64,000 bases of DNA from Serratia sp. Ag1. Its GTDB lineage: Bacteria; Pseudomonadota; Gammaproteobacteria; Enterobacterales; Enterobacteriaceae. Under the pieces are notes generated by a model, which was given only the letters and a program-made list of their open reading frames with translations, did no database searches and had not been told where the DNA came from. The stretch lies in contig NZ_JQEI01000023.1 in NCBI RefSeq assembly GCF_000743355.1, positions 1 through 64,000 on the forward strand. Reading direction: 5' to 3'. Position numbers and translations under genes: made by a program. The number at the start of each line of letters is the position of its first letter. Position 1 is the first letter of the stretch. Below are positions 3,831-51,926 of this stretch, piece by piece.

Positions 3831-5360
3831 ATGACGGAACTCAGGCTTATTTTAGGGGATCAGCTTAATCCCGAGCATTCCTGGTTCAGGCAACGGTCTG
3901 ATCGGGTGGTGTATGTGATGTTGGAACTGCGGCAAGAAACGCGCTATGTCCTCCATCACGCTCAAAAGATTATTGCCATCTTTGCCGCCATGCGTGAATT
4001 TGCCCGCCAATTAAGCCAGCAAGGCCACCGAGTGCGTTATGTTCAGCTTGACGATCCCTCGAACCGTGGATCGCTGACCGATAATCTGGACGCCCTGATT
4101 GCCCACTACCAGGCAGTTAAATTCAGTTGGCAACTCCCCGATGAATGGCGGCTGGATCAACAGTTAACACGCTGGGCTACGTCTTGCAAGGTGGTCACCC
4201 AAAGCGTAGACAGCGAACACTTTTTTTGTCATCGCGAACAGGTCGCGAGCTTTTTTGGCCAGCGTAAAACCTGGCGTATGGAAAATTTTTATCACGAAAT
4301 GCGCCGCCGTGAGCGGGTGCTGATGTGCCCGGACGGCCAGCCTGAAGGGGGCGCATGGAATTACGACGCCGAAAACCGCAAGCCATGGAAAGGCACTCCC
4401 GCAACGCCGGACGATCGTCGGCCAGTGCACAACCATGAAGCACTCTGGCAAAGCCTGACCGAGCTTGAGGTGCCAAGTTTTGGTGAGCCGCATGCCGCAG
4501 ACTTCCGCTGGCCGTTGGATCGCCAGGAAGCTTTAGCACTATTAGAATGCTTTATCCGCGACGATCTGCGCCATTTTGGACAGTGGCAGGATGCGATGCA
4601 CACGGACTGTTGGCATCTGTTTCACTCCCTGATCTCTTTTGCCCTCAATACTAAAATGCTGTCACCACGGGAAGTGGTGAGCAAGGCGCAGGCCGCTTGG
4701 CAAAATGGCGAAGTGCCTTTGGCTTCTGCAGAGGGATTTATCCGGCAGGTATTAGGTTGGCGCGAGTATGTGCGGGGCGTTTATTGGGCAAAAATGCCTG
4801 GCTATCGCGATAACAATTTCTTCAATCACCAGCGCCCGCTGCCTGCCTGGTTCTGGGATGCCAACACCAAAATGAACTGCATGGCGCATGCGATTGGGCA
4901 ATCGCTGGATCAGGCTTATGCGCACCACATCCAGCGGCTGATGATTGTCGGCAATTTTGCATTGCTCGCAGGGCTAGCCCCTGCCGAGGTTCATGCATGG
5001 TATTTAGGTATTTACATCGATGCTTTCGAATGGGTCGAACTCCCCAACACGCTCGGGATGAGTCAATTTACCGATGGTGGGTTGCTTGCCAGCAAACCTT
5101 ACGTCTCCAGCGCGGCTTATATCAATAAGATGAGTAATTACTGTTCTGGGTGTGAATACAATCCGCGAGAACGCCTTGGGCTAAACGCCTGCCCATTCAA
5201 TGCGCTGTACTGGCATTTTTTTATCCAGCATCAGTCGCAACTGGCGCATAACCTGCGTTTGTCGATGGTGTATCACCAGCTCAAAAAACTCTCGCCACAG
5301 GAGCAGGAAAATATCACTCAGCATGCGCAAAATCTGCTGATAGCGATAGAGAAACTGTAA
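3831..5360 (+). CDS. iron-sulfur bacterial cryptochrome/photolyase (PhrB-like, (6-4) photolyase family)
   Basis: This 509-residue protein matches the deoxyribodipyrimidine photolyase-related family that carries FAD, a second chromophore and a 4Fe-4S cluster. The four cluster cysteines are at 350, 438, 441 and 454 (NCMAHAIG, YCSGCEYNP, NACPFNALYW), the same spacing and numbering as I recall for Agrobacterium PhrB. The N-terminal LRLILGDQLNPEHSWF segment is the antenna-domain start. The protein should repair UV (6-4) photoproducts using blue light. The FeS class and length are certain; the exact lesion specificity is inferred. GGGGCA precedes the ATG. No partner gene is adjacent, and the next gene is convergent. 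Confidence 0.9.
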   Translation: MTELRLILGDQLNPEHSWFRQRSDRVVYVMLELRQETRYVLHHAQKIIAIFAAMREFARQLSQQGHRVRYVQLDDPSNRGSLTDNLDALIAHYQAVKFSWQLPDEWRLDQQLTRWATSCKVVTQSVDSEHFFCHREQVASFFGQRKTWRMENFYHEMRRRERVLMCPDGQPEGGAWNYDAENRKPWKGTPATPDDRRPVHNHEALWQSLTELEVPSFGEPHAADFRWPLDRQEALALLECFIRDDLRHFGQWQDAMHTDCWHLFHSLISFALNTKMLSPREVVSKAQAAWQNGEVPLASAEGFIRQVLGWREYVRGVYWAKMPGYRDNNFFNHQRPLPAWFWDANTKMNCMAHAIGQSLDQAYAHHIQRLMIVGNFALLAGLAPAEVHAWYLGIYIDAFEWVELPNTLGMSQFTDGGLLASKPYVSSAAYINKMSNYCSGCEYNPRERLGLNACPFNALYWHFFIQHQSQLAHNLRLSMVYHQLKKLSPQEQENITQHAQNLLIAIEKL

Positions 5361-5476: not shown

Positions 5477-6047
<571 letters not shown>

Positions 6048-6650
6048 ATGACTCTCTATAAGATCAAGCCTGCTTTTCAGGCGCTGTTACGGCCCAGTAT
6101 GCGTTGGTTGGATAAACGCCATGTGACAGCCAACCATGTTACCTTGGCGGCGATGCTGCTTTCGCTGCTGACCGGTGGATTGCTGGTGCTATTCCCGCAA
6201 CCGAGTCTGTTTTATCTCCTGCCGATAGTGTTATTTATTCGCATGGCGCTGAATGCGCTGGATGGCATGCTGGCCCGTGAGTGCGACCAGAAAAGCCGCC
6301 TCGGTGCCGTTCTTAATGAAATCGGCGATGTCCTCTCAGATGTCGCCCTGTATATCCCCTTTATCTTTTTACCCGGCAGCTACGCCCCGCTGGTATTGGC
6401 TATGCTGTTCTGCGCGGTGCTGACGGAGTTTTGCGGCATTTTGGCACAAACCATCAACGGCGTGCGTAGCTACGCCGGGCCGTTGGGCAAAAGTGACCGG
6501 GCGTTGCTGTTCGGCGCTTGGGGGCTGGTGCTGGCGATCTGGCCGCCAGCGGCGGAGTGGAGCAACCTGGTGTGGGGCGTCGCGACGCTATTGTTAGCCT
6601 GGACGGTGGTGAATCGTTGCCACAGTGCCTTGGTAGGGGAGCATCAATGA
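6048..6650 (+). CDS. ynbA: CDP-alcohol phosphatidyltransferase family protein (YnbA-like)
   Basis: This 200-residue integral membrane enzyme belongs to the family that transfers a phosphatidyl group from CDP-diacylglycerol to an alcohol. The signature lies at 69-94: DG at 72-73, AR at 76-77, Gly86 and Asp94 are present, but two aspartates of the canonical D-x2-DG-x2-AR-x8-G-x3-D-x3-D motif are asparagines (69 and 90). As far as I recall, E. coli YnbA shows the same changes. Five or six hydrophobic segments are visible. It is the first gene of a six-gene operon, and its stop overlaps the start of ynbB (ATGA). The acceptor alcohol is unknown. AGGGATG precedes the ATG. Confidence 0.88.
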   Translation: MTLYKIKPAFQALLRPSMRWLDKRHVTANHVTLAAMLLSLLTGGLLVLFPQPSLFYLLPIVLFIRMALNALDGMLARECDQKSRLGAVLNEIGDVLSDVALYIPFIFLPGSYAPLVLAMLFCAVLTEFCGILAQTINGVRSYAGPLGKSDRALLFGAWGLVLAIWPPAAEWSNLVWGVATLLLAWTVVNRCHSALVGEHQ

Positions 6651-7564
6651 TGTTGCTGGAAAAATCGCTGGCGGTCATTTTTGCCCTGTTGCTGTTCGCC
6701 ACGCTGGTGAACGGCTTGCTGCTCTGGTTGCGGCCAGAGAAAGACTGGCGTGAACTGACGCTGCGCATCCGTACCTGGTGGGTGATTATCGTGCTGTTTT
6801 CACTGGCGATGATCAGCCCGCACTGGCTGGCGTTGATCTTTTTCGCGCTGGTCAGTTTTATGGCTTTGAAAGAATTCCTGACGCTGGTGCCCTCCCGGCA
6901 TTCAGATCGCATGCCGATGCTGTGGATGTTTATTGCCATCCCCATCAACTACTGGCTGATCGGCATTGGCTGGTACGGCATGTTCATCGTGTTTATTCCG
7001 GTGTACGTGTTTTTATTCCTGCCCGCGCGCATGGTAATCGCTGGTGACACTCAGGGCTTTTTGAGTACGGCTGCGCAATTGCACTGGAGCCTGATGACCA
7101 CTGTTTTTGCCTTCAGCCATGTGGCATGCCTGCTGGTGCTGCCTGCTGATGGTCTGCAAACCGGGGCGCTGCTGGTGCTGTTTCTGGTCGGCCTGACCGA
7201 GTTTAACGACATCGCCCAGTATCTGTGGGGCAAATCGCTGGGGCGGATTAAGGTCACGCCGAAGGTCAGCCCGAATAAAACTCTGGCGGGCCTGCTGGGT
7301 GGCATTGGCAGCACCGCGTTGGCGGCATTGCTGCTTGGCCCGTTACTGACCCCGTTAAGCTGGCCGCTGGCGCTGTTGGCGGGGGTGATTATCGGCGTGA
7401 CGGGGTTCTGCGGTGATATTGTGATGTCGGCGATCAAGCGCGATATCGGCATAAAAGACAGCGGCACGCTGCTGCCGGGCCACGGTGGCATTCTCGATCG
7501 CCTGGACTCGCTGATCTTCACTGCGCCGGTTTTCTTCCACTTTATCCGTTACTTCTGCTACTGA
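6647..7564 (+). CDS. ynbB: CdsA-like phosphatidate cytidylyltransferase (YnbB-like)
   Basis: This 305-residue multi-pass membrane protein makes, by family, CDP-diacylglycerol from phosphatidate and CTP. The C-terminal CdsA signature is complete: KVSPNKTLAGLLGG, then GFCGDIVMSAIKRDIGIKDS and LPGHGGILDRLDSL, ending in FIRYFCY. ATG 6647 overlaps the ynbA stop; the open frame extending back to 6518 runs inside ynbA and is not used. It should supply the activated lipid for YnbA. Since the organism will also have housekeeping cdsA, this is a paralogue devoted to the operon. Confidence 0.9.
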   Translation: MMLLEKSLAVIFALLLFATLVNGLLLWLRPEKDWRELTLRIRTWWVIIVLFSLAMISPHWLALIFFALVSFMALKEFLTLVPSRHSDRMPMLWMFIAIPINYWLIGIGWYGMFIVFIPVYVFLFLPARMVIAGDTQGFLSTAAQLHWSLMTTVFAFSHVACLLVLPADGLQTGALLVLFLVGLTEFNDIAQYLWGKSLGRIKVTPKVSPNKTLAGLLGGIGSTALAALLLGPLLTPLSWPLALLAGVIIGVTGFCGDIVMSAIKRDIGIKDSGTLLPGHGGILDRLDSLIFTAPVFFHFIRYFCY

Positions 7565-7568
7565 CGCC

Positions 7569-8210
7569 ATGATGAAAAAATTCCTCAGAACGCTGTTTTC
7601 CCTGTGTATCGTCTGGCCAGTCATCTGGCTGTGGCTTGGGCTGCGGGTAAAGCACCGGGAACGCCTGCCGCAGCAGGGCCCGGCGATCCTGGTGGCGAAC
7701 CATAACAGCCATATGGATGTGTTTGTACTGTTGTCGCTGTTCCCGCTGGGGCAGCAGCATATCGTGCATCCGGTGGCCGCTGCAGACTACTTTCTGCGTA
7801 ACCGGTGGCTGGCGTGGTTTACGCTCAATATCCTCAATATTATCCCGATCTCGCGTCAGGGGGGCGAAGAGAACCCGCTGGCGCTGTGTGAGCAGGCGTT
7901 GCGCGACAACAAGATGCTGATCCTGTTTCCAGAAGGTTCACGCGGTGAGCCGGGTAAACTGGCACCGCTCAAATCAGGCTTGTGGCATCTCAGCCAAAGC
8001 ATGCCAGAGGTGCCGATCATTCCCGTCTGGCTGAAAGGCACCGAACGGGTGATGGCGAAGGGGAACCGCATCCCGCTGCCGCTGTTTATTGATGCCAATG
8101 TGGGTGAGGCAATGCAGTTTCACCCCGACAAAGGCCTGTTTAAGGAAGCGCTGTTGCAACGCTTACTGCAGCTTCGCCAGGAGATAAAAGGAAATGAATC
8201 CCATGGCTGA
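7569..8210 (+). CDS. 1-acyl-sn-glycerol-3-phosphate acyltransferase (PlsC-like)
   Basis: This 213-residue membrane-associated acyltransferase shows motif I as NHNSHMD (His45, Asp50) and motif III as FPEGSRG. One N-terminal hydrophobic segment (about residues 8-25) anchors it. It starts 4 bases after ynbB ends and overlaps the following ynbC. By family it acylates lysophosphatidate to phosphatidate, the substrate of CdsA. As I recall the E. coli ynbABCD operon lacks this gene, so here the module is more complete. The acyl donor and acceptor are not visible from sequence. Confidence 0.88.
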   Translation: MMKKFLRTLFSLCIVWPVIWLWLGLRVKHRERLPQQGPAILVANHNSHMDVFVLLSLFPLGQQHIVHPVAAADYFLRNRWLAWFTLNILNIIPISRQGGEENPLALCEQALRDNKMLILFPEGSRGEPGKLAPLKSGLWHLSQSMPEVPIIPVWLKGTERVMAKGNRIPLPLFIDANVGEAMQFHPDKGLFKEALLQRLLQLRQEIKGNESHG

Positions 8211-9963
8211 TATCCGCACACCAGACGAAAAAAGCTTTCTGACCAGTGATCATACCGAGCTGTTTTATCGCCACTGGCCAGCGCAAGAAAAGGGTGAGCT
8301 ACGCAAAGTCATCGTTCTGTTTCATCGTGGCCATGAACATTCCGGGCGTTTGCAGCACATCGTTGATGAACTGGCGATGCCGGATACCGCCTTCTACGCA
8401 TGGGATGCGCGCGGCCATGGGCGCTCACCGGGCCAGCGTGGGCACAGCCCCTCGTTGGCCCGCTCGGTGCAGGATGTAGACGAGTTTGTCCGCTTTGCCG
8501 CTGCCGACAGCCAGGCGGAGTTGGAACACGTGATCGTGGTGGCACAAAGCGTTGGTGCGGTGCTGGCGGCAACCTGGGTACACGACTATGCGCCCGCGAT
8601 CCGTGGGTTGGTGCTGGCATCGCCCGCCTTTAAGGTCAAACTGTATGTGCCGTTTGCTCGCCCTGGGTTGGCGCTGTTGCATCGCCTGCGCGGGCTGTTT
8701 TTCGTCAACTCCTACGTTAAAGGCAAATACCTGACGCACGATCCTGAGCGGATAGCGAGCTTTAATCATGATCCGCTGATTACCCGGCCGATAGCCGTCA
8801 ATATCCTGCTCGATCTGTACCGCACCGCCGAACGGATCGTGAGCGATGCCGCTGCGATCACCTTACCGACGCAGTTGCTGGTTTCCGGTGAGGATTATGT
8901 GGTTCACCGCAAGCCGCAGTTGGACTTCTACCAGCGCCTGCGCAGCCCACTCAAAGAACTGCACGTCTTACCAGGGTTATATCACGACACCCTCGGTGAA
9001 CGCGATCGGCACATCGCGTTCGACAAAATGCGCGCTTTTATCGACACCTTGTACGCCATGCCGCCACAGCGTTTCGATTACCAGAATGAAGATCGCTGGA
9101 GCCCTGGTGCGGACAACTGGCGGATGCTGAGCGGCGGCCCGACACCTTATTCCCTTGATGATATGACCTATCGCGCCATGCGTTATGGCATGAAAATGCT
9201 CGGCACCCAGTCAACCGGCGTGAAGCTGGGGTTTGAGACCGGCTTTGATTCTGGCAGCACGCTGGATTACGTCTATCGCAACCAGCCACACGGCAGCAGT
9301 TGGTTGGGGCGGCAAATTGATAAAAACTACCTTAACAGCGTGGGCTGGCAGGGGATTCGCCAGCGTAAGGTCCATTTGCAGCAGCTCATTCAGCAGGCGG
9401 TAGCACGGTTGGCGCAGCAGGGTAAACCGGTGCGGGTGGTCGATATCGCCGCCGGGCATGGCCGTTATGTGCTGGATGCGTTGGCGAGCGAAGCGGCGGT
9501 CAGCGAGATTTTACTGCGTGATTACAGCGAACTGAACGTGGCGAAGGGGCAGGAGATGATCGCTGAACGTGGCATGGCAGATAAAGCGCGTTTTGAACGC
9601 GGTGATGCCTTCAACCGCTCGGAACTGGCGACGTTAGCGCCACGCCCGACGCTGGGTATCGTTTCCGGCCTCTATGAGCTGTTCCCGGAAAATGCCTTGG
9701 TGCGTGGATCGCTGGCCGGGCTGGCGGACGCTATCGAACCGGGTGGAATGCTGATCTACACCGGGCAGCCCTGGCATCCGCAGTTGAAAACGATCGCCTG
9801 GTCGCTCACCAGCCATAAAGACGGCAAAGCGTGGGTGATGCGTGTACGCACTCAAGGCGAGATGGATGCGCTGGTACGGGAAGCCGGTTTTGATAAATGT
9901 GCTCAGTTGATCGATCAATGGGGGATTTTTACCGTCTCGCTGGCGGTGCGTCGTCACCTATGA
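8203..9963 (+). CDS. ynbC: bifunctional alpha/beta hydrolase / SAM-dependent methyltransferase (YnbC-like)
   Basis: This is a natural two-domain fusion of about 586 residues. Residues 1-290 form a serine hydrolase of the monoacylglycerol lipase/lysophospholipase type, with nucleophile Ser116 in VVAQSVGAV (Ala in place of the first Gly of GxSxG), HRGHEHSGR before it and a late His in GLYHDTLGE. Residues from about 380 form a class I methyltransferase with the SAM-binding loop [16 protein letters not shown] and an acidic LLRDYSE strand. ATG 8203 has AAGGAA at 9 bases; an ATG at 8194 is abutted by that site. It overlaps plsC by 8 bases and ynbD by 3. Hydrolysis plus methylation of a lipid product is inferred. 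Confidence 0.87.
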
Positions 9964-11255
9964 GCCACTTGGTAACGCGCCGTAGGCTGATTATTCAGGG
10001 GATGGGGTGGTTGCTCCTGCTGGCCCCGTTTTTCTTCCTCACTTATGGTCAGGTGAATCAGTTCACTGCGGGTAGGGATGGCGTAGGCAGCGTGGTGTTC
10101 GCCTGGGAGCCGCATATTCCTTTTATGCCGCTGACCATTATTCCTTACTGGAGCCTGGATTTGCTGTATGGCCTGTCGCTGTTTGTCTGTTTCTCGCTCA
10201 GCGAACAGCACCGATTGGTGGGGCGGCTGGTACTGGCGTCTTTGGTGGCCTGCGCCGGGTTCTTGCTGTTTCCGCTGCGTTTTACCTTTATCCGGCCACC
10301 GGTTTCTGGTTTTGCCGGTTGGCTGTTCGGGCAGTTGGAGCAGTTTGATTTGCCCTATAACCAGTCGCCTTCGCTGCACATTATTCTCTGTTGGCTGCTG
10401 TGGCGTCATTTCAACCACCACCTCACTGGCCGCTGGCGTTGGCTGTGCAGTGCGTGGTTTTTGCTTATTGCACTCTCGGTACTGACCACTTGGCAACACC
10501 ATGTTATTGATGTGATTACCGGGCTGGTGGCCGGGATGGTGATTGACTGGCTGATCCCTCAACGGGGGCATTGGCGCTGGCAGCGCCCAGATGCTCGCCG
10601 TCAAACGCTGGCCCGGCGTTATTTGTGTGGTGCGCTGATCTGCTTGGTGGCAGGCGGGGTTTCCCCTTGGCTGTGGTGGCCTGCACTGGCGTTGGGTATC
10701 GTCACGCTGGCCTATGCCGGGCTTGGCGTTGCCGCCTTGCAGAAAGATCAACAAGGGCAACTGACGCCCGCAGCACGTTGGCTGCTGCTGCCTTGGCGGT
10801 GCGGGATGTTTATCTCTCTGCTGGGTTACACCCGCCGTTTGCCAGCGGTCAGCCAACTGACTGACGAGGTGTTCCTTGGCAGTTACCCGCGTCGCCAGCC
10901 CGTGCAGCAGGCGGTACTGGATGTGACCAGTGAATTCCCTCGCTCGCGCCACCTCAACGGAGTAGCTTACCACTGTGTACCGATGCTGGATCTGGTGTGC
11001 CCGGACAACACCCAACTCCAACAGGCGGTAACGGCGTTGGAGCAGTTGCGGCAATCTCAGGGGACGGTGCTGGTGCATTGCGCACTGGGGCTGTCGCGCA
11101 GCGCGATGGTTGCTGCCGCCTGGTTGCTGCAGCAACAGCCGACGCTAACGGTGGCTCAGGCGGTAGCATTTATTCGCCAGCAACGGCCACAGATCGTTTT
11201 CACCTCTCAACACCTGGAGCAGTTGGAACAATGGCGAACGCAAATGACGAAGTGA
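9960..11255 (+). CDS. ynbD: membrane phosphatase: PAP2-like and dual-specificity phosphatase domains (YnbD-like)
   Basis: This 431-residue protein has an N-terminal multi-pass part resembling PAP2 lipid phosphatases ([10 protein letters not shown], then [17 protein letters not shown]) and a C-terminal cysteine phosphatase domain with the P-loop HCALGLSRS (Cys374, Arg380). The general acid is probably an Asp in [11 protein letters not shown] or VPMLDL. ATG 9960 overlaps the ynbC stop; the frame opening at 9897 lies inside ynbC. Cysteine phosphatases of this type include phosphatidylglycerophosphate phosphatases such as PTPMT1, so removal of a phosphate from the YnbA product is a reasonable inference. 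Confidence 0.87.
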
Positions 11256-11629
11256 CCGACGTGCAGGCAGCGCTGCTTGAGCGGACATTAGCAAGCTGGC
11301 GTTTTTTATTGCTGATGGCTGCGCCACCGCTGTTGTGGGTAATGTTCGCGGCATCGCCCAGCGTACTGCGGGTGGTAATTGCGTTGTTGAGCGGTGTGAG
11401 TGGTTACGGTTGTTGGCGGCTGTGGCTGGATGCCGGATATCTGGCGCGCTTTAACGCCGCACAGAATCAGCAGGCAGGGGCAGCGCTGGCGCTGATTTGG
11501 CAGCGGGAAAGGTTAACACAACTGTCATTGGCCGAGCGTCAGCAGGGGGCGCTGCAGCAACTCAGACGCACGATCCTGGTAACCCTGCTGCTGTGGGGGT
11601 GTTGGCTACTTGGTTTGGCGCTGTATTAA
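11231..11629 (+). CDS. small membrane protein of the ynb operon, function unknown
   Basis: This 132-residue protein has two hydrophobic segments near residues 24-60 and one near the C-terminus ([14 protein letters not shown]), with a charged helical stretch between them. I do not recognise its family. ATG 11231 overlaps the end of ynbD by 25 bases and has GGA 4-8 bases upstream. The longer open frame starting at 10997 lies inside ynbD and is a shadow. The position as last gene of the operon suggests an accessory or scaffold role in the lipid system. Confidence 0.65.
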
Positions 11630-11678: not shown

Positions 11679-13273
<1,595 letters not shown>

Positions 13274-25026: not shown

Positions 25027-26199
25027 ATGGCGTATCAACTGAACCTTAACTGGCCAGAATTTCTAGAGAAATACTGGCAGAAACAACCGGTCGTACTGAA
25101 AAATGCCTTGCCAGACTTTGTCGACCCGATCACGCCGGATGAGCTGGCGGGTTTGGCAATGGAAGCGGAGGTTGATAGCCGTTTGGTCAGCCAGGAAAAT
25201 GGCCTGTGGCAGGCCAGTAACGGGCCGTTTGAGCATTTTGATCATCTGGGGGAAACCGGCTGGTCGTTGCTGGCTCAGGCGGTTAACCATTGGCACGCTC
25301 CCTCTGCGGAGCTGGTGCGCCCGTTCCGTGTGTTGCCGGATTGGCGCCTGGACGATCTGATGATCTCCTTTTCTGTGCCAGGTGGTGGCGTCGGGCCACA
25401 TATCGATCAGTATGATGTTTTTATCATTCAGGGAATGGGTAGCCGCCGCTGGCGCGTGGGCGATAAGTTGCCTCTCAAGCAGTTTTGTCCACACCCGGCG
25501 CTGCTGCATGTGGAGCCGTTTACGCCGATCATCGATGAAGATCTGGCTCCGGGCGATATCCTGTATATCCCGCCGGGCTTTCCGCACGATGGTTTTACTC
25601 ACGAAGCCGCACTTAACTACTCGGTCGGTTTCCGTGGCCCCAATGGCCGGGATTTAATCAGCAGCTTCGCTGATTATGCGCTGGAAAACGATCTCGGCGG
25701 TGAACACTACAGCGATCCTGATTTAACCTGCCGCGAACACCCGGGTAAGGTTGAGGATTATGAGCTTGATCGCCTGCGCCGGATGATGATCGACATGATT
25801 AATCAGCCAGAAGATTTTAAGCAGTGGTTTGGCCGCTTTGCTACCACGCCGCGCCATGAACTGGATATTGCCCCCGCGCACCCGCCTTATGAGCCGAGTG
25901 AGATTGTTGATGCTCTGATGAGTGGTGAAGTTCTGACGCGGCTGAGTGGGTTGCGGGTTCTACGCATTGGCGATGGCTTTTTTATCAATAGCGAACCGCT
26001 GGAAACGGTAGCACCGAAAGCGGCTGATGCCCTGTGCCGTTACACGATGCTCGGCAAAAAAGAGCTGGGCGAGGCGCTGCATAATCCGGCATTTGTTACC
26101 GAGTTAACCGGGCTGATCAATCAGGGGTACTGGTTCTTCGACGACTATACCCGTCATACTTCAAGTTGCTTGGGTGTTGGCTGCGTTACTCGGCCCTGA
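25027..26199 (+). CDS. roxA: ribosomal oxygenase RoxA (50S protein L16 3-hydroxylase)
   Basis: This JmjC-type Fe(II)/2-oxoglutarate oxygenase hydroxylates an arginine of ribosomal protein L16, by comparison with E. coli YcfD. The iron ligands are His125, Asp127 (GPHIDQYD) and His187 (GFPHDG). ATG 25027 gives the family start MAYQLNLNWPEF; the open frame back to 24958 is not supported. The normal family end is GYWFF plus one or two residues. Here the frame continues for about 17 residues (YTRHTSSCLGVGCVTRP) encoded by an inserted ERIC element, so the C-terminus is repeat-derived. Confidence 0.95.
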   Translation: MAYQLNLNWPEFLEKYWQKQPVVLKNALPDFVDPITPDELAGLAMEAEVDSRLVSQENGLWQASNGPFEHFDHLGETGWSLLAQAVNHWHAPSAELVRPFRVLPDWRLDDLMISFSVPGGGVGPHIDQYDVFIIQGMGSRRWRVGDKLPLKQFCPHPALLHVEPFTPIIDEDLAPGDILYIPPGFPHDGFTHEAALNYSVGFRGPNGRDLISSFADYALENDLGGEHYSDPDLTCREHPGKVEDYELDRLRRMMIDMINQPEDFKQWFGRFATTPRHELDIAPAHPPYEPSEIVDALMSGEVLTRLSGLRVLRIGDGFFINSEPLETVAPKAADALCRYTMLGKKELGEALHNPAFVTELTGLINQGYWFFDDYTRHTSSCLGVGCVTRP

Positions 26200-26345
26200 C
26201 TGGGCCTCGCCCCTTCGGGGCCGCTGCAAGCAGCGTTCAAATCTGCTTACGCAGATTTGTCACTCACCCCAGTCACTTACTTGAGTAAGCTCCTGGGGCT
26301 TCGTTCCGTTGCCGCCTACAAGCAACTCGAATTATTTTGGGTATA
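26146..26345. repeat. ERIC element with internal insertion, 200 bp
   Basis: It begins TATACCCGTCATACTTCAAG and ends ACTCGAATTATTTTGGGTAT plus A, with the ERIC core CCCCAGTCACTTAC inside. Compared with the 127-bp copy at 51927 it carries about 70 extra bases containing two small hairpins (GGCCTCGCCCC/GGGGCC and AAATCTGC/GCAGATTT). It overlaps the last 54 bases of roxA. Confidence 0.9.
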
Positions 26346-26412
26346 ATAGCGCTGTGAAGAACGGCTGCCAAATGCACAGGTTTAATGTGATTTGGCAGCC
26401 GTTTTTTGGAAC

Positions 26413-27744
26413 TTACTCAGCCATAACCGGTTTCACCCTATGGTGTGGTTGGGCCGTGACGCGATGTTTAAGCACAAAACAGGCGACGATGCCAAAGCAT
26501 GCCATCACGACGGTGTAACCAAAATAAAGCTGGTAACCGGTTTCCTGGTTGGGGGCGTAGTCCATAATGTAGCCGTTAATCAACGGGATAAAGATATCTG
26601 GGCAATAGCCCACCGCAGAAATCACCCCGATTGCCAGGCCGAGTTTGTTTTCTGGCACCTTCAGATTTTCAATAATCGCCCAATACAGACCACGTACTGC
26701 GTAAGTCAGTAGGCCGACGAACAGAATAAAGAACACACAGAAGCCAATCACGACGTTTGAAGGTAATTGCGTTGCAGGGATACAGATAAGGCCGACAAGC
26801 CCAAGCGCGCTAAGTATTAATGCGTAGGTTAATACCCTGATATTGCCCAGTTTGTCCCCCAGGAATCCACCGGCGACCCCGCCAATCGGGCGCAACCACA
26901 GTTTGATGGTGGTAATCGTCCCCGCCATCACGGCGGTGAAGCCCCAGCCACCGGCTTGCAGATAGCCCGAAAAGCTGTAGGTAGACCAGAATAAGTGATA
27001 GCCAGAGGAGATGATGATGGCGATCAGCCACACTTCAGGTTGCCGCAGGATAAACCCCAAATCCTTAATAACGTTTTTATGGCTGGTTTTAGGCTGTTTC
27101 TCCTCTGTTGTACTCGGCAGATTGCCTTCAAACCAGATGCAGACAAAACAGACGATGGCCAACGCAATACAGAACCAGGAATACATGTGAATAACGTAGA
27201 CCAATCCCTGCACCACATTTTTGTCATTCGGGCCAACCGTAACCGAGAAAATAAATAACGCAATGCTCGCCAGGATCGATTCCACTAAACCACGGCCACC
27301 GTCGTAAATACCGTAAAATCGCCCGGCTTCATTTTTGGCCGCAAGCAGCTTAATGCGCTTCATCACCGCTCCCCAGAAGGTCAAACCGGTGGTTACGCCC
27401 CAGCCAGAAAAAATGATGAGCAGCGCGGTGTAGGAGGGTAAGGTGCTGTACCACAGCCCCAGCAGCCCGGTCCCCAGCAGAGACAGGGTAATTAACTTCA
27501 TCGGTTTTACTCTGTCTGCTAACCAACCGCTGGGCGTATAACAGATAAAGAATAAAAGCCCCATGATTGAATACAGTTCACCGAGTTGCACATTGGTAAT
27601 ATTAAAAGCGTGCAGCATGGTATCCTGATAAATCTGCCTTAAATATAACATCGGATATATTGCACCACCGGCAGCGGTCAGCAGCAAGATCTGCATATAT
27701 CGGGTGCTATTCTTTACTTGCTCTGTCTTTATTGTATTTTCCAT
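26413..27744 (-). CDS. yqcE: MFS transporter (YqcE/YihN-like)
   Basis: This 443-residue twelve-helix transporter of the major facilitator superfamily carries YPMLYLRQIY in helix 1, then PSGWLADRVKPMK between helices 2 and 3. Its position with ygcE-, ygcU- and ygcW-like genes matches the E. coli ygc/yqcE locus, so the symbol is given by context and resemblance. It probably imports the sugar or polyol that the oxidoreductases and kinase convert. It is the last gene of the minus-strand operon. The substrate is unknown in any organism I can name. Confidence 0.85.
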   Translation of the reverse strand: MENTIKTEQVKNSTRYMQILLLTAAGGAIYPMLYLRQIYQDTMLHAFNITNVQLGELYSIMGLLFFICYTPSGWLADRVKPMKLITLSLLGTGLLGLWYSTLPSYTALLIIFSGWGVTTGLTFWGAVMKRIKLLAAKNEAGRFYGIYDGGRGLVESILASIALFIFSVTVGPNDKNVVQGLVYVIHMYSWFCIALAIVCFVCIWFEGNLPSTTEEKQPKTSHKNVIKDLGFILRQPEVWLIAIIISSGYHLFWSTYSFSGYLQAGGWGFTAVMAGTITTIKLWLRPIGGVAGGFLGDKLGNIRVLTYALILSALGLVGLICIPATQLPSNVVIGFCVFFILFVGLLTYAVRGLYWAIIENLKVPENKLGLAIGVISAVGYCPDIFIPLINGYIMDYAPNQETGYQLYFGYTVVMACFGIVACFVLKHRVTAQPHHRVKPVMAE

Positions 27745-27801
27745 AATTGTCTACCTGTATGATGTCGGTTACCCTCTGACTCCCAAACGGCAAGGCGCCA
27801 T

Positions 27802-27830
27802 CACTCAGGTATTTGTTTAATACCTGAGTG
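27802..27830. repeat. perfect intercistronic hairpin between the kinase and transporter genes
   Basis: CACTCAGGTATT and AATACCTGAGTG form a perfect 12-bp stem with a 5-base loop. It lies in the 125-base gap between two genes of one operon and lacks a T-tract, so it more likely stabilises mRNA ends or lowers downstream expression than terminates. Confidence 0.6.
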
Positions 27831-27869
27831 TTATACCGGCGTCGGCCGGGAGTGGGGATAGCGATGTAT

Positions 27870-29309
27870 TTATCTTGCTTGTCTATTAAGGAAGCTATAA
27901 GCCTCAGACAGGAGTGGATCCGTGTAATTACGGACTTTTGTGTACACATTCTTATTAATGGCATCATAGTAAATATGATTGTCGTTATTCGGTGTGTACT
28001 TTTTCTTTATCTGTACCATTTCTTTTTTCGCCTGGTTAAAATCCTGCACTACGCCTAAACCAACAGCAGCACACATAGCAGCACCCAGGCAGGCCGAACT
28101 GTTAGCTTTTAGCGTGTAGGTCTCTTTACCAAACAGATCGCAGATAATCTGTACTAAAACATCACTTTTTGCACCGCCGCCAATAATGCGAATGCTGTTT
28201 ATGTTCGATGCGGTTTCTTGCAACATGGCATCTATATTATTTTTTATCGTGTAGGCAATAGCCTCCAGAATAGAACGGTAAATATGGTACTTAGTATGTC
28301 GTTGATCAAAGCCAAGCATAATCCCTTTGCGGAATTGATGGCTCGGCGGGCTCAACCAGTCAAGAATAGTAATCAACCCTTCAGAGCCTGGCGCAATAGA
28401 GTCGGCAATACGGTTTAAAACATCTTCCTCACTGATGTTTTCCATCTCGGCAATTTTGCTGATATCTTCCCCGGCTAAATTTTTAAACCAGCTCACCGTC
28501 CACATACCACGCCGGATCCCGGTGGATTCATAGACATATTTAAACGGTTCACACGCCAGCGTTGGGAAAAAGCTCTCGGCATTAGAGTAGTAATCATGGC
28601 GATAGAGCATGGCTGAAATAAATGTCCCTAACGAGATCATGATTTCATTGGCATCGGTGATCCCAGCCCCCAATACTTCAACCGCCTTGTCATTGCCTGT
28701 AGCGAACACCTGGATAGCCGTGTTCAGGCCAAAACGCTCGGCCAGTTCTGCACGTAGCGGGCCGTAACTCTCACCGGGTTTGATCAGTTCAAACAGTTGG
28801 CTGCGTGTTAGCCCCTGGCGCTGAATTTCGGCGTCATCTGCCCACTGCAGAGTTTGCCAATTCATCGGCCAGTAAACTTCCTGATTGGAACAGCTGTCCT
28901 TAAAAGCACCGGTTAAGCGTAACCCAAGGTAACCGGAAGTGGTGGTGACATATTTCACCGCATCATTCTGGTGAACATAGGGTTGCGACATGCGCATATC
29001 CATCCAGCTAATAACCGGTTCAACCAGCTCACCGTTTTTACCCAGCAGAACTCGGCAGCAACGGATGGTACATAACCCAATTCCCACAATCTGCTGGCGA
29101 TCGCCGGTAAATTTATTCAGGCAATTTTCTATCGCTCGCTGTAGGCTTTCCCAGAGATCTTCTCCTGGGTGGTAAACCACACCGGGGGCCGGTGTTTCGG
29201 TGTTCTGCAATTGATCGCTGCCATAACAGATTTCATTACCCTGTTGATCGAAAATACCCACCTTGGTACTTTGCGAGCCGCTATCAATACCCATGAATAG
29301 TTTTTTCAT
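27870..29309 (-). CDS. ygcE: FGGY-family carbohydrate kinase (YgcE-like)
   Basis: This 479-residue kinase of the xylulokinase/glycerol kinase superfamily has the phosphate loop FMGIDSGSQSTKVGIFD at the N-terminus and RIIGGGAKSDVLVQI near the C-terminus. GGAAG precedes the ATG. Gene content around it (ygcU-, ygcW-, yqcE-like genes) is that of the E. coli ygc locus. It should phosphorylate the ketose made by the dehydrogenase(s) of the operon. It is unrelated in detail to the FGGY kinase at 22738, so the window holds two different members. Confidence 0.87.
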   Translation of the reverse strand: MKKLFMGIDSGSQSTKVGIFDQQGNEICYGSDQLQNTETPAPGVVYHPGEDLWESLQRAIENCLNKFTGDRQQIVGIGLCTIRCCRVLLGKNGELVEPVISWMDMRMSQPYVHQNDAVKYVTTTSGYLGLRLTGAFKDSCSNQEVYWPMNWQTLQWADDAEIQRQGLTRSQLFELIKPGESYGPLRAELAERFGLNTAIQVFATGNDKAVEVLGAGITDANEIMISLGTFISAMLYRHDYYSNAESFFPTLACEPFKYVYESTGIRRGMWTVSWFKNLAGEDISKIAEMENISEEDVLNRIADSIAPGSEGLITILDWLSPPSHQFRKGIMLGFDQRHTKYHIYRSILEAIAYTIKNNIDAMLQETASNINSIRIIGGGAKSDVLVQIICDLFGKETYTLKANSSACLGAAMCAAVGLGVVQDFNQAKKEMVQIKKKYTPNNDNHIYYDAINKNVYTKVRNYTDPLLSEAYSFLNRQAR

Positions 29310-29452
29310 TATTCACTTCCATTATTTTTGATCTAGGTGGAGTGAGGGAATGATTAAATGTCGAGACGGCCTGAGTTGCAGCAGCGTTGAATACAACATC
29401 AGGCACGTCGGATATTACACAGACTCCTCGTTGAGGGATTTATCCGTGAAGA

Positions 29453-30925
29453 TTACTCAAAAAAATGCTCTGTGCCAGGTTGTGGGTAAATACAACCAAA
29501 GTTCATGATGCCTTTCGGGTCATAAACCTGCTTCAGCCCTTGCAGAATATAATAGGCACTGCCATGTTCCTGCTCAGTCCATTGGTTACGATATTTACCA
29601 ATACCGTGGTGGTGGCACATGGACCCGCCCAATTTCAGCGTTTCTTCTACAATAATGCGCTGGATAGGGTGGTGATAAATGCGCATTTCATCTTTCGGTT
29701 CGCAATGAATATTGTAGTTATAAACAAAGTACATATTGGTACCGTTGATATAGCTATGCGACGAGTGCCCGCCCAACATGGTGAGATCTTCACTCCGTTC
29801 AAATTCAGAGCGGATACGCTGGATCACGCGATCGTAGATTTTCGGGATCATTTCCCAGCTTGCGGAGATCTCCGTGGTGAAGCCGTCGTGCCGACTGTGA
29901 TTCACCATGTCGCTGACTTCTTGCTCAATGCGCGCCTGGGACCAGTTGAGATGGTTGAACCAGTTTTCGATCAGTTGGCTTTTAACCGGTTTCAAGATCC
30001 CGGCCGCATGCTCAGCAATGATCTGATTGATGCCATCAATGGTGGCATTCACGATGCCGGAGGGCCCTTCCACCATAAAGATCAGAACGCATTTGCCTTC
30101 GTGGAAGGCGGAGAAATGCTGCGCGGCATCTTCTTCTGAGTAAACCCGTGCTACGGAAGGGCGGTAGCCTGCAACCATGACGTCACGCAGGATCTTGATC
30201 CCTGAAGCAACGTCTTTGATTAAGTGGCCGATAAAGCGGTTGTTCTCCGGGTAGAACTTGAACAGTTTCACCGTAACTTCGGTGATAAAACACAGGGTGC
30301 CTTCGTTACCAATCACCACATGGCGGATGTCCGGGCCGCCAGCACGGCGTGCAACACTCTTGATGCGCGAGATGTGCCCATCAGGGAAGACGCACTCCAA
30401 GCCGAGCACCATGTCCTCGATCCCGCCGTACAGAGTAGAAAACTGGCCGATACTGCGCGTGGCTACCAGCCCGCCATACTGTGCAACCGGTTTGGACTGC
30501 GGCGAATGGCCGGTTGTCAGCCCCTGCTTACGCGCTTCGTCTTCCAGCGTTTGCAGGCAAACCCCCGCTTGCACCGTAGCTTCCATATTGTAGCTGTCGA
30601 TTTTGATGATTTTATTCAGGCGTGCCGAGTCAATCACCAGGGTATTGTCTTTCCAGTTTTCCAGGCCACCTTCGGTTGCCGTTTTGCCACTTCTCGGGAT
30701 AACGTTAATGGCGTTTTGATTACAGAATTGAAGTATTTCCGCCACCTCGGTGGCACTTTCTGGCAGCACAATAGCCGTAGGGAGCGGCACATTAAGTTGC
30801 TCTTTGGCCTTGGCATATTTTTTATATCTGTCGGCTGCTGCATCATATAATTTTGCATGATCGGTCACGATCTGATCGGCTTTCAGCAGATGACGCAATT
30901 GCTCTAATGTTTCGTGCTTGTTCAT
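29453..30925 (-). CDS. ygcU: FAD-binding oxidoreductase (YgcU-like)
   Basis: This 490-residue flavoprotein of the PCMH/VAO type has an FAD-binding N-terminal half (VIPRSGKTATEGGLE, HSPQSKPVAQYGGLVATRS, GNEGTLCFITEVTVK) and an alkyl-DHAP-synthase-like C-terminal half ending GSMCHHHGIGKYR. The central segments are closely similar to E. coli YgcU as I recall it. ATG 30925 with AAGGG upstream is preferred to the longer frame at 30943. It lies 21 bases after the SDR gene. It is expected to oxidise a hydroxy-acid or sugar alcohol with electrons passed to the respiratory chain or oxygen; the substrate is unknown. Confidence 0.87.
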   Translation of the reverse strand: MNKHETLEQLRHLLKADQIVTDHAKLYDAAADRYKKYAKAKEQLNVPLPTAIVLPESATEVAEILQFCNQNAINVIPRSGKTATEGGLENWKDNTLVIDSARLNKIIKIDSYNMEATVQAGVCLQTLEDEARKQGLTTGHSPQSKPVAQYGGLVATRSIGQFSTLYGGIEDMVLGLECVFPDGHISRIKSVARRAGGPDIRHVVIGNEGTLCFITEVTVKLFKFYPENNRFIGHLIKDVASGIKILRDVMVAGYRPSVARVYSEEDAAQHFSAFHEGKCVLIFMVEGPSGIVNATIDGINQIIAEHAAGILKPVKSQLIENWFNHLNWSQARIEQEVSDMVNHSRHDGFTTEISASWEMIPKIYDRVIQRIRSEFERSEDLTMLGGHSSHSYINGTNMYFVYNYNIHCEPKDEMRIYHHPIQRIIVEETLKLGGSMCHHHGIGKYRNQWTEQEHGSAYYILQGLKQVYDPKGIMNFGCIYPQPGTEHFFE

Positions 30926-30946
30926 AATTACCCTTATCATCATTGA

Positions 30947-31732
30947 TTAACGCACTAAAAAGCCACCATCAACCGCTATTACTGAGCCGTTAACATAATT
31001 AGAGGCATCGGAAGCCAAAAAGACCGCTGTTCCCATCAGGTCGGCAATATTTCCCCAACGATTAGCCGCAATATGCGAAAGCACTCGTTTATTAGCTTCT
31101 GGATCTGAACGTGTCTTTTCAGTTAATGGTGTTGCATAATATCCAGGTGCAATAGCGGTAACCTGAATGTTGAATTGTGCCAGTTCATCACAATAGGCTT
31201 TGGTCAACCCGACAATACCGTGTTTGCTGGCTGAATATGCCGGTGACCACTGCCCGCCCAAGTACGAGAACATGGAGGCGATGTTGATAATTTTCCCGCT
31301 GCGTTGGGGAATCAGATATTTGGCAACTTCGTGTGACATTTCAAATGCGGCACTCAGGTTGAGTGCGATCATTTTGTCCCACTGCACGCGGGTAAATTTA
31401 AGGACATCGGGCTCGTTAATACACATTCCGGCGTTGTTAACCAGTATGTCGATGCGGCCAAAGCGTGCGGCTACTTTGTCGATTGCCTGCTGCGGTTCTC
31501 CTTCACGGGTAATGTCAGCAAGAATAAACTGATAATCCACTCCGCACTCTTCCACTAAACGCCGTGTTTCCCCTTCGTCGTCTGCAATCGCAATCACCGC
31601 TACATTGGCCCCGGCTTTGGCAAATGCGACGCTGTATGCCTGGCCCAACCCGCTGTTACCTCCTGTGACAATCGCTGTTTTTCCCTTTAAAGAGAACAGG
31701 TTCAAACTGAAGTCTGTGATTTTTTCCAACAT
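30947..31732 (-). CDS. ygcW: SDR-family oxidoreductase (YgcW-like)
   Basis: This 261-residue short-chain dehydrogenase has the cofactor motif TGGNSGLGQ near residue 22, NNAG, the catalytic Ser in INIASMFSYLGGQ and YSASK (Tyr, Lys). The SYLGGQWSPAYSASKHG region is the same as in E. coli YgcW. It is the first gene of the four-gene minus operon and would interconvert a sugar acid or polyol and its keto form. Its promoter lies in the AT-rich gap shared with the divergent RpiR gene. Confidence 0.9.
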   Translation of the reverse strand: MLEKITDFSLNLFSLKGKTAIVTGGNSGLGQAYSVAFAKAGANVAVIAIADDEGETRRLVEECGVDYQFILADITREGEPQQAIDKVAARFGRIDILVNNAGMCINEPDVLKFTRVQWDKMIALNLSAAFEMSHEVAKYLIPQRSGKIINIASMFSYLGGQWSPAYSASKHGIVGLTKAYCDELAQFNIQVTAIAPGYYATPLTEKTRSDPEANKRVLSHIAANRWGNIADLMGTAVFLASDASNYVNGSVIAVDGGFLVR

Positions 31733-32105
31733 GATCGTTTCCTGATGATTTTTAACATTTAACTTTCATTAACCCTGATCCTGGGTAACATTTATACCGA
31801 TTATTTTCCATAAAACTATGCTTTAGATCCATTTTGTGGAAAATTATTTAAATTAAATTCCTATTGGCTGTTTTTTTGAATTTATTTGGACTTTTGTTTT
31901 ATTAAATTTAATTTAAATGGATTTTAATTCTTAATTTATGTGATTGTATGGATATTTTGTTTGTCATAACGTGGTTTTTAAGGCTGTAACCGAGGGGGAA
32001 TTCTGTAGAGGTGGTTATATCTTCGGCAAGCGGGGTACTCATCTGGAGGTTTTTCTCGTACCATTGGGCCGGGATGATGATTAGGGTGAACATCGGAAAC
32101 AAATC
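31733..32105. promoter_or_regulatory. AT-rich divergent promoter region with an inverted repeat
   Basis: The 373-base gap between ygcW and the RpiR gene is strongly AT-rich, unlike most of the window. At 31804-31815 and 31832-31843 TTTTCCATAAAA and TTTTGTGGAAAA form an inverted repeat with one mismatch and a 16-base spacer, a candidate operator for the RpiR protein. No gene was found; a 64-codon frame at 31908-32102 has no support. Confidence 0.55.
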
Positions 32106-32810: not shown

Positions 32811-32830
32811 TTCGCTGTTGGCATATATCC

Positions 32831-32866
32831 GTTATGCTGCAAGTTGCAGGTAGTAAACATCCCTGC
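32831..32866. terminator. imperfect palindrome between RpiR and VOC genes (ERIC-arm-like or terminator)
   Basis: GCAAGTTGCAGG and CCTGCAACTCGC form a 12-base stem with one mismatch around a 10-base loop. The left arm resembles the ERIC terminal arm. It lies between convergent genes and may end both transcripts. Confidence 0.5.
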
Positions 32867-32893
32867 AACTCGCATTGCTACAGTGCAAATATT

Positions 32894-33265
32894 TTATTTC
32901 ATTGAATGCAGACCGATCACATTGCCTTCGGTGTCTTTTGCGATCGTAATAAAGCCGTTTTCGCCGATAGAAAACTTGGCGCGCAAGATTTCGCCGCCGT
33001 TAGGCACAATTCGCGCCTCTTCTACGGCGCAATCTTCACAAATAAAGTACACCATGGTGCCACCAGGCCCTGGCGTAACGCCGTCCATTTTAGCCAGCGC
33101 ACCACCAGCTCCTTCGCTCCCACCCTGGTAAGGGAATAACCAGTAATCCATTTCCTCGCTTGGCATCTTTTCAAGCTGAGTGTTGAAAACCGACTCGTAG
33201 AATTTTTTAGCACGTGACATATCGGCAACATAAATCTCAAACCAACCAACGATATTCGTTTTCAT
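32894..33265 (-). CDS. VOC family (glyoxalase/dioxygenase-like) protein
   Basis: This 123-residue protein has the vicinal oxygen chelate fold: FEIYVADMSRAKKFYESVF at the start and ITIAKDTEGNVIGLHS at the end, with a metal-site candidate Glu8 but few histidines. ATG 33265 is chosen because AAAGGAAAG lies just upstream; the longer frame starts at 33307. VOC proteins of this type are often of unknown substrate. It is a monocistronic gene, and its neighbours give no clue. Confidence 0.85.
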   Translation of the reverse strand: MKTNIVGWFEIYVADMSRAKKFYESVFNTQLEKMPSEEMDYWLFPYQGGSEGAGGALAKMDGVTPGPGGTMVYFICEDCAVEEARIVPNGGEILRAKFSIGENGFITIAKDTEGNVIGLHSMK

Positions 33266-51896: not shown

Positions 51897-51926
51897 TATA
51901 TCTCCCTCAACGGTTTGCCCACAGTA

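What the first reader, a model, noticed from the sequence alone, without database searches (positions are those of the whole stretch)
6048..11629. Self-contained alternative phospholipid operon (ynbAB-plsC-ynbCD plus a small membrane protein)
Six genes overlap or nearly touch each other and encode, in order, a CDP-alcohol phosphatidyltransferase, a CdsA-like cytidylyltransferase, a PlsC-like acyltransferase, a hydrolase-methyltransferase fusion, a PAP2/cysteine phosphatase and an unknown membrane protein. Together they could turn lysophosphatidate into phosphatidate, CDP-diacylglycerol, a phosphatidyl-alcohol phosphate and then its dephosphorylated, possibly methylated, form. The E. coli ynb operon is uncharacterised in product and, as I recall, lacks the acyltransferase. 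The product here could be an undescribed membrane lipid.
Basis: partly seen in the sequence, partly recalled or inferred. Interest (0 to 1): 0.72.

Follow-up and report, generated by a model that had tools for sequence, protein, structure and literature searches.

The report
Defence-linked operon for unknown membrane lipid
Six neighbouring genes look like a complete, movable kit for making a special membrane lipid; the same six genes help another bacterium survive attack by rivals, but which lipid they make is not known.

Summary
In detail: six tightly packed genes at 6048-11629 encode YnbA, YnbB, a PlsC-like acyltransferase (P), YnbC, YnbD and a small membrane protein (X). The set is not peculiar to this window: profiles find all six in 59 of 70 full-flank named loci; E. 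coli K-12 lacks P and X. The same six genes, in another order, match arc1A-F (PA2541-PA2536) of Pseudomonas aeruginosa, a Gac/Rsm-controlled cluster needed to survive type VI secretion attack (PMC8926400); primers printed in that paper fall on the edges of the orthologous genes. No paper in the held library names both arc1A and ynbA. New here: YnbA replaces two of four signature aspartates of CDP-alcohol phosphotransferases with asparagine (84 of 84 rows). It keeps the arginines that hold an acceptor's phosphate but not the inositol contacts, and inositol-phosphate synthase is missing from 39 of 41 ynbC-bearing genomes. So the product is probably neither phosphatidylinositol nor ordinary phosphatidylglycerol. 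Best reading: an inducible, horizontally mobile pathway for a dedicated phospholipid that protects the envelope during attack. Defence is published for P. aeruginosa; the lipid and the defence role here are inferred.

The parts
6036..6043 (+). CAGGGATG over the ribosome-binding site of ynbA, resembling a CsrA/RsmA site (consensus recalled)
   Evidence: Sequence. CARGGA in 12 of 26 GGA-bearing ynbA leaders against 56 of 674 control leaders; the longer CARGGATG is in 0 of 39 other ynbA leaders and 2 of 635 controls; not in a hairpin loop here
6048..6650 (+). ynbA: divergent CDP-alcohol phosphotransferase homologue (signature N-x2-DG-x2-AR-x8-G-x3-N-x3-D)
   Evidence: PF01066; N69 and N90 invariant in 84 of 84 rows; orthologue of arc1A/PA2541
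6647..7564 (+). ynbB: CdsA-like phosphatidate cytidylyltransferase
   Evidence: PF01148 227 bits; this genome has one other PF01148 gene; orthologue of PA2536
7569..8210 (+). PlsC-like (lyso)phospholipid acyltransferase
   Evidence: PF01553 82 bits; NHxSHxD and FPEG motifs conserved in 65 rows; counterpart of PA2537
8194..9963 (+). ynbC: monoglyceride-lipase-like hydrolase fused to a Methyltransf_20 domain
   Evidence: PF12146 and PF12147; AF2 model pLDDT 87.4, hydrolase half closest to monoglyceride lipases; S119, D234, H264 invariant in 24 of 24 rows, nearly invariant in the 32-row set with divergent members
9960..11255 (+). ynbD: PAP2-like membrane domain, two further helices, dual-specificity phosphatase domain
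   Evidence: PF00782; C374, R380, D344, H140, H180, D184 invariant in 30 of 30 rows; AF2 pLDDT 93.5, DSP fold
11231..11629 (+). X: small membrane protein of unknown function (132 aa)
   Evidence: R63, D67 and R103 invariant in 29 of 29 rows; no Pfam, NCBIfam, PADLOC, PHROGs or PDB match

Best explanation
This is the Serratia-type arrangement (A-B-P-C-D-X) of the arc1/ynb operon: an accessory, horizontally mobile, self-supplied pathway for a dedicated phospholipid, made when the cell senses attack on its envelope. P and B build CDP-diacylglycerol apart from the housekeeping pool. YnbA transfers the phosphatidyl group to a phosphorylated alcohol other than inositol phosphate. The YnbD phosphatase domain removes that phosphate. 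The YnbC hydrolase and methyltransferase trim and methylate the lipid or clear lyso-lipids. X is probably a partner of D or an assembly factor. The altered membrane resists injected effectors. SHOWN HERE: gene content, conservation, homology to arc1, signature changes, other copies of the CdsA, acyltransferase and CDP-alcohol families in the genome. PUBLISHED ELSEWHERE: a P. aeruginosa PA2541 (arc1A) mutant survives T6SS attack poorly and a further PA2536 deletion adds nothing; E. coli YnbB makes CDP-DAG in vitro. INFERRED: the order of reactions, the phospho-alcohol acceptor, the roles of C, D and X, induction and a defence role in this organism.
For: In that locus (L219) four different primer segments match, at the start and end of the YnbA orthologue, at the start of the YnbB orthologue and inside the operon, with C, D, X and P between (47, 58, 46, 37, 44% identity to the window for A, C, D, P, B; X by profile only). 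PA2537 is listed as 'probable acyltransferase'. Loss of PA2541 lowers survival under T6SS attack, partly complemented, with no effect on heat, peroxide, salt or detergent survival. Unit: all six genes in 59 of 70 full-flank named loci, in three orders; apart from shared chromosomal flanks among Escherichia, Citrobacter and Klebsiella, no gene is conserved next to it; Serratia oryzae shares the operon (85% DNA identity) but, within the 21.8 kb held, not the flanks; the operon also lies on plasmids. Dedicated: this genome has one other PF01066 gene, one other PF01148 gene and five other acyltransferase-domain loci. All 27 of 27 PF12147-bearing genomes among 398 carry YnbA. Phospho-alcohol acceptor: YnbA R151 (84/84) and R190 (82/84) align with R155 and R195 of M. 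tuberculosis PIP synthase, which hold the acceptor's phosphate; PgsA-type controls have Q and Y there, 30 of 30. Not inositol: R94, K135 and S132 of that enzyme are not kept, and inositol-phosphate synthase is absent in 39 of 41 ynbC-bearing genomes (41 of the 42 found). Regulation: PA2541 is listed as an RsmA target with a site around its ribosome-binding site; CARGGA is enriched there in the family.
Against: YnbA fails the CDP-alcohol phosphotransferase signature at D1 and D3, so the transfer reaction may be changed or lost. E. coli YnbD replaces neither PGP nor undecaprenyl-PP phosphatase, so its substrate is unproved. No lipid product is named in the passages I saw. In the eLife study no single-effector mutation of the attacker relieved the arc1 defect; in its transposon screens one arc1 gene passed the cut-off for Tle3 and one for ColA, and arc1 loss also modestly raised attacker survival, so the role is not purely or simply defensive. 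In the papers I saw, defence is tested in P. aeruginosa alone; an E. coli ynbB mutant grows normally with normal MPIase. Six of nine fetched YnbA loci without PF12147 are A-B-P triads without C and D, so the full chain is not always present. The CARGGA leaders are related sequences, not independent events; the window's own CAGGGATG recurs in 0 of 39 other leaders, and its leader has no special fold.
Confidence: 0.58

Rival explanations
1. Lipid-damage repair unit: the operon clears or recycles lysophospholipids, monoglycerides or phosphatidate made by phospholipase effectors (C hydrolyses, P re-acylates, B and A drain phosphatidate), and no special lipid is the point.
For: The YnbC hydrolase half is closest to monoglyceride lipases; P is a PlsC-like acyltransferase; the arc1 phenotype is mainly defensive; in one transposon screen one arc1 gene contributed to defence against the phospholipase Tle3.
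Against: Inactivating Tle1 or Tle3 of the attacker did not relieve the arc1 defect. The methyltransferase and YnbA are not needed for repair, yet A is more widespread than C (37 against 27 of 398 genomes). B and P are not found in 6 of 70 full-flank loci that keep A, C, D and X.
Confidence: 0.2
2. Emergency copy of phosphatidylglycerol synthesis (PlsC, CdsA, PgsA, PGP phosphatase), as the eLife authors' annotation suggests.
For: Four of the six genes resemble enzymes of phosphatidylglycerol synthesis (PMC8926400).
Against: YnbA has K/R/R where PgsA-type proteins have T/Q/Y and lacks D1 and D3; E. coli YnbD does not replace PGP phosphatase; C and X have no known part in that pathway.
Confidence: 0.12
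3. YnbA has lost catalysis and is a CDP-DAG-binding sensor or scaffold; the operon senses membrane state.
For: N69 and N90 replace two metal-ligand aspartates in 84 of 84 rows.
Against: The other six signature residues, including the catalytic base D94, are invariant and the phosphate-binding arginines nearly so, and CDP-DAG-making genes travel with it.
Confidence: 0.06
4. The operon supports MPIase, the glycolipid for membrane-protein insertion, through YnbB.
For: Overproduced E. coli YnbB raises MPIase, and YnbB makes CDP-DAG in vitro (PMC6362211, PMC7018664).
Against: A ynbB mutant has normal MPIase; B is not found in ACDX operons, so B cannot be the core; nothing in the MPIase proposal as I saw it calls for A, C or D.
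Confidence: 0.04

Closest known systems
arc1A-F (PA2541-PA2536), antagonism resistance cluster 1 of Pseudomonas aeruginosa (PMC8926400)
   Same: All six gene families side by side; 37-58% protein identity for A, C, D, P and B, X by profile (in the genome that matches the paper's primers).
   Different: Gene order A-C-D-X-P-B against A-B-P-C-D-X here; regulation and defence untested here.
E. coli K-12 ynbABCD
   Same: A, B, C, D orthologous (identity to the window 71% for A, 60% for D, 76% for C) in the same order.
   Different: Lacks P and X.
Bacterial phosphatidylinositol-phosphate synthase (M. tuberculosis PgsA1, Renibacterium PIPS)
   Same: Homologous by profile search; arginines for the acceptor phosphate kept.
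   Different: D1 and D3 are Asn; the inositol contacts R94, K135, S132 are not kept.
Bacteroides inositol-lipid cluster BT_1522-BT_1526 (PMC9246714, passages)
   Same: Similar logic: a CDP-alcohol phosphotransferase and a lipid phosphatase in one cluster.
   Different: It has its own inositol-phosphate synthase and an AUR1-like synthase; the passage lists no hydrolase-methyltransferase, CdsA or PlsC.

Membership tests
arc1/ynb operon | Six orthologous genes side by side on one strand | tested here: met
arc1/ynb operon | Gac/Rsm (RsmA/CsrA) control of the first gene | tested here: inconclusive
   CARGGA motif over the ribosome-binding site, enriched across related leaders; longer form not shared; no hairpin; no binding data
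arc1/ynb operon | Protection against T6SS attack | not testable with these tools
   Published for P. aeruginosa
CDP-alcohol phosphotransferase (catalytically standard member) | Eight-residue signature D1xxD2G1xxAR...G2xxxD3xxxD4 (PMC4634129) | tested here: not met
   D1 and D3 are N in 84 of 84 rows; the other six residues are kept; 30 of 30 controls have D and D
CDP-alcohol phosphotransferase superfamily (by descent) | PF01066 above its gathering score | tested here: met
   39.2 bits against 22
Phosphatidylinositol-phosphate synthase | R155 and R195 equivalents | tested here: met
   R151 84/84, R190 82/84
Phosphatidylinositol-phosphate synthase | R94 equivalent, NCBIfam cut-off, and a source of inositol phosphate | tested here: not met
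   V or I at 95; NF045883 50.6 of 170 and NF040950 68 of 180 bits; PF01658 absent in 39 of 41 genomes including this one
PgsA (PGP synthase) | The T, Q and Y that PgsA-type controls have at the aligned pocket positions; NCBIfam cut-off | tested here: not met
   K/R/R against T/Q/Y in 30 of 30 controls; TIGR00560 25.3 of 109.1 bits
CdsA (housekeeping) | NCBIfam CdsA cut-off | tested here: not met
   92.5 bits against 385, though PF01148 is met
PlsC (housekeeping) | NCBIfam 1-acylglycerol-3-phosphate acyltransferase cut-off | tested here: not met
   62.6 against 102.95 bits, though PF01553 is met
PAP2 superfamily (YnbD N-terminal half) | PF01569 or PF14378 above cut-off | tested here: not met
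   17.7 of 27.2 and 24.6 of 27 bits; PSxH and HxxxD residues kept; called a putative PAP2 in PMC7413402
Dual-specificity phosphatase (YnbD C-terminal half) | C(x)5R loop and general-acid Asp | tested here: met
   C374, R380, D344 invariant in 30 of 30 rows; fold match
PGP phosphatase (YnbD) | Replaces E. coli PGP phosphatases | not testable with these tools
   E. coli YnbD failed in published complementation (PMC7413402)

The most novel reading that the evidence does not exclude
A distinct clade of CDP-alcohol phosphotransferases with Asn in place of two metal-ligand aspartates, together with a sister set (Asn at D1 in 8 of 9 rows, at D3 in 9 of 9) that also travels with CdsA-like or PlsC-like genes, makes an undescribed phospholipid from a non-inositol phosphorylated alcohol. 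In the arc1/ynb branch that lipid is dephosphorylated and methylated, and serves as an inducible shield against injected toxins in many Proteobacteria, E. coli included.
Probability: 0.35. Interest if true: 0.82.

Novelty: new member of a known kind. Interest (0 to 1): 0.57.

Why it matters
It joins two unsolved threads: the orphan ynb operon of E. coli, whose CdsA-like member has been read as an MPIase enzyme, and the arc1 defence cluster of P. aeruginosa, whose mechanism is not given in the paper that named it. If they are one system, the lipid can be sought in the best-studied bacterium, and lipid remodelling joins the ways in which bacteria withstand type VI attack. The Asn signature would also widen what a CDP-alcohol phosphotransferase active site can be.

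Tried and rejected
Phage defence: PADLOC gave nothing for five of the six proteins and two weak methyltransferase-like matches to YnbC; rejected. Prophage origin: PHROGs gave four matches to A, C and D, the named ones generic (esterase/lipase, dual-specificity phosphatase), none to B, P or X. Guilt by association beyond the six genes: clusters shared by three or more genera lie at scattered distances, except the chromosomal flanks that Escherichia, Citrobacter and Klebsiella share. Phosphatidylinositol: rejected on residues and on the absence of inositol-phosphate synthase (two of the 41 genomes do have it). Phosphatidylcholine: EcoCyc once listed YnbA as a cholinephosphotransferase and withdrew it (PMC3781023, passage). 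PRK12361 (YnbD 258-449 matches it at 101 bits, cut-off 505): in 36 genomes nothing passed its cut-off, and most of the other matches fall on its C-terminal half; that this half is a lipid-kinase domain is recalled, not tested; not used. YnbD PAP2 half: the 50 Foldseek hits shown all reflect the DSP half, so its subtype stayed open; kinship with AUR1 or sphingomyelin synthase was a recalled idea, not tested. YnbA was not modelled: the two structure jobs went to YnbD and YnbC. PMC12663445 (2025, T6SS resistance, arc1A 18 times) and PMC11888443 were seen in a listing only, because 15 papers had already been fetched; the first may bear on the mechanism. The leader of ynbA has no unusual fold.
Full report
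1. The observation. Six co-directional genes fill 6048-11629. Neighbours overlap by 4 to 25 bases or lie 4 bases apart. Pfam assigns YnbA to PF01066, YnbB to PF01148, P to PF01553, YnbC to PF12146 plus PF12147 and the C-terminal half of YnbD to PF00782; the N-terminal half of YnbD matches PAP2 families below their cut-offs and X matches nothing. The genome looks like a Serratia-related enterobacterium: the nearest named locus is Serratia oryzae, with 94% identity in YnbC (records very near the window may be left out there). The genome holds one other PF01066 gene, one other PF01148 gene and five other acyltransferase-domain loci, so the operon is not the sole housekeeping set.

2. How general it is. 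PF12147 occurs in 18 of 197 genomes of the order and 27 of 398 of the phylum. Of the 70 with enough flank, profiles find all six genes in 59: 20 in the order A-B-P-C-D-X (Enterobacterales, Neisseriales and one unplaced MAG; order names recalled), 38 as A-C-D-X-P-B (Pseudomonas, Variovorax, Cupriavidus and others) and one as A-C-D-X-B-P. Six (Providencia, Xenorhabdus, Morganella) have A-C-D-X; five show other partial sets (Escherichia, Citrobacter, Rahnella, Klebsiella, Xenorhabdus). These counts rest on profile matches, not on intact genes: some are split or short. E. coli K-12 has ynbABCD without P and X. A match to the first four kilobases was found in 4563 of 5426 complete E. coli genomes, at 80% coverage or more in 556. 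Plasmids carry all six in Citrobacter and Burkholderia, A, B, P, C and a short D in E. coli, and a set with some split genes and a weak X match in Shinella. Between the window and Serratia oryzae the operon aligns, 85% over 5.6 kb; the flanks held do not, apart from short repeats. Beyond chromosomal flanks shared by Escherichia, Citrobacter and Klebsiella, no gene is conserved next to the operon. The unit is therefore self-contained and appears to move as a unit.

3. Sub-modules. Among 398 genomes a YnbA profile finds 37 at E of 1e-50 or better, including all 27 with PF12147. Ten have YnbA without PF12147. Of the nine I fetched, six are A-B-P triads, two have A without a recognised partner and one has a degenerate motif; the tenth, whose match contains a stop, was not fetched. 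Eight further loci hold a sister type (58 to 74 bits); B and/or P was listed in six of the eight (the listing hides overlapped ORFs). So A is the common core, B+P would supply CDP-diacylglycerol and C+D+X would tailor.

4. The active site of YnbA. Published work defines the family by eight residues; D1 to D3 hold the metal and D4 is the likely base (PMC4634129, passages; PMC6506517, passages). The profile alignment to the M. tuberculosis enzyme puts N69 at D1 and N90 at D3; both are invariant in 84 of 84 rows, as are D72, G73, A76, R77, G86 and D94. A pattern that allowed D or N at D1 and D, N or E at D3 found N/N 122 times in the loci then held (loci overlap, so these are not independent) and D/D in the 30 PF01066 controls only. 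The controls are the best-scoring hits of 60 genomes and are PgsA-like, so they do not sample every subfamily. R155 and R195 of the M. tuberculosis enzyme, which bind the acceptor's phosphate, correspond to R151 (84 of 84) and R190 (82 of 84); K148 (84 of 84) takes the place of R152. The inositol-linked residues R94, K135 and S132 correspond to V/I, mostly G/A, and G. PgsA-type controls have T, Q, Y at 148, 151, 190, 30 of 30. Inositol-phosphate synthase is missing in 39 of 41 ynbC-bearing genomes searched, this one included, and present in two. The acceptor is therefore probably a phosphorylated alcohol that is not inositol phosphate and is held differently from glycerol phosphate in PgsA. 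The nine sister-set rows (the eight above and the degenerate one) keep K, R and R in 9 of 9, have N at D1 in 8 and at D3 in 9, have lost R77 in 9, and have the R94 equivalent in 8; so the sister type is closer to inositol enzymes at that point than YnbA is.

5. The other proteins. YnbC: a model with pLDDT 87.4 whose hydrolase half is closest to monoglyceride lipases (TM-score over the target 0.76-0.86), with S119, D234 and H264 invariant in 24 of 24 rows (nearly so in 32 rows with divergent members). YnbD: a model with pLDDT 93.5, a membrane half with invariant H140, H180 and D184 and a phosphatase half with invariant C374, R380 and D344 (30 rows); Foldseek confirms the latter as a dual-specificity phosphatase, with PTPMT1 among the matches at ranks 25 and 31, not the top. 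That the two halves act on opposite faces of the membrane would be inference. X: R63, D67 and R103 invariant in 29 rows, function unknown.

6. What is published. For E. coli: YnbB makes CDP-DAG in vitro, raises MPIase when overproduced, cannot replace CdsA and is dispensable (PMC6362211, passages; PMC7018664, passages; also PMC10881803, passages). YnbD replaces neither PGP nor undecaprenyl-PP phosphatase (PMC7413402, passages). ynbB was one of five hits in a screen of a strain making ECA-PG alone, but was then found not necessary for ECA-PG synthesis (PMC8609368, passages). A ynbC insertion led to polyphosphate accumulation in one background but not in Keio strains (PMC2435150, passages). ynbA appears in a table of a c-di-GMP screen (PMC13031359, passage) and ynbC in a table of persistence variants (PMC13313352, passage); neither was pursued. 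For P. aeruginosa: PA2541-PA2536 is arc1A-F (PMC8926400, sections 5 and 6 and passages). It is Gac/Rsm-regulated; deletion of PA2541 lowers survival under T6SS attack by Burkholderia thailandensis, is partly complemented, and a second deletion (PA2536) adds nothing. It has no role in four general stresses. [quoted passage not shown] in transposon screens one arc1 gene passed the cut-off for Tle3 and one for ColA. Arc1 loss also modestly raised attacker survival. The authors describe five of six genes as phospholipid-related, four of them resembling phosphatidylglycerol synthesis. 'ynb', 'methyltransferase' and 'CdsA' do not occur in its text as searched.

7. The link. Segments of the paper's deletion primers were used as patterns. 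One of 25 genomes of an unnamed genus, taken to be Pseudomonas, matched the PA2541 start. In its locus the PA2541 segments sit exactly at the start and end of the YnbA orthologue and the PA2536 segment at the start of the YnbB orthologue; C, D, X and P lie between them in that order, and a further PA2536 primer matches inside the operon. Five other patterns did not match, so the genome need not be PAO1 itself. PA2537 is elsewhere called a probable acyltransferase (PMC2246019, passages). No paper of the held library contains both arc1A and ynbA. That search covers open-licence PMC texts only, and PMC12663445 (arc1A 18 times) was not read.

8. Regulation. PA2541 is listed as an RsmA target with one site around its ribosome-binding site (PMC4066749, passage). 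In the window CAGGGATG lies just upstream of the ynbA start. CARGGA occurs in 12 of 26 GGA-bearing ynbA leaders (38 leaders examined, the window's not among them) against 56 of 674 GGA-bearing controls (2437 examined), Fisher p 9e-7. Against it: the window's longer form CARGGATG is in 0 of 39 other leaders, the leaders are related, control starts are approximate, and the window's leader shows no special fold. Suggestive only.

9. Verdict. Confirmed observation; interpretation partly supported. It is a member of the arc1/ynb kind, in another gene order than arc1 and with a fuller gene set than E. coli. The unproved and most interesting part is the product: a non-inositol, probably non-PG phospholipid made through an Asn-type CDP-alcohol phosphotransferase.

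Noticed in passing
L210-L217 (unnamed Proteobacteria): A sister type of YnbA also has Asn at D1 and D3 and has lost the signature Arg; CdsA-like and/or PlsC-like genes were listed beside it in six of eight loci.
   Followed up: partly
L201-L206: Three-gene sets A, B, P without C, D and X, including one in the window's own family (L201).
   Followed up: partly
window 26146-26345 and 51920-52053; L051 7474-7604 and 20496-20629: Repeats of about 130-200 bp, the one at 26146-26345 bounded by inverted repeats (MITE-like), occur in the window and beside the operon in Serratia oryzae.
   Followed up: partly
window 11679-13234, minus strand: Amidohydrolase and 3-hydroxyanthranilate 3,4-dioxygenase genes downstream, facing the operon: possibly part of a kynurenine-type catabolic cluster.
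   Followed up: no
window 3831-5360: Deoxyribodipyrimidine photolyase-related (PF04244) gene upstream.
   Followed up: no
window 26000-34000: G+C falls to 43-49% against about 53% immediately on either side, perhaps an acquired stretch.
   Followed up: no
L003 (E. coli plasmid NZ_CP045714.1): A plasmid copy of the operon in which ynbD appears cut short and ynbA has no listed gene; the gene table of that collection is incomplete.
   Followed up: no
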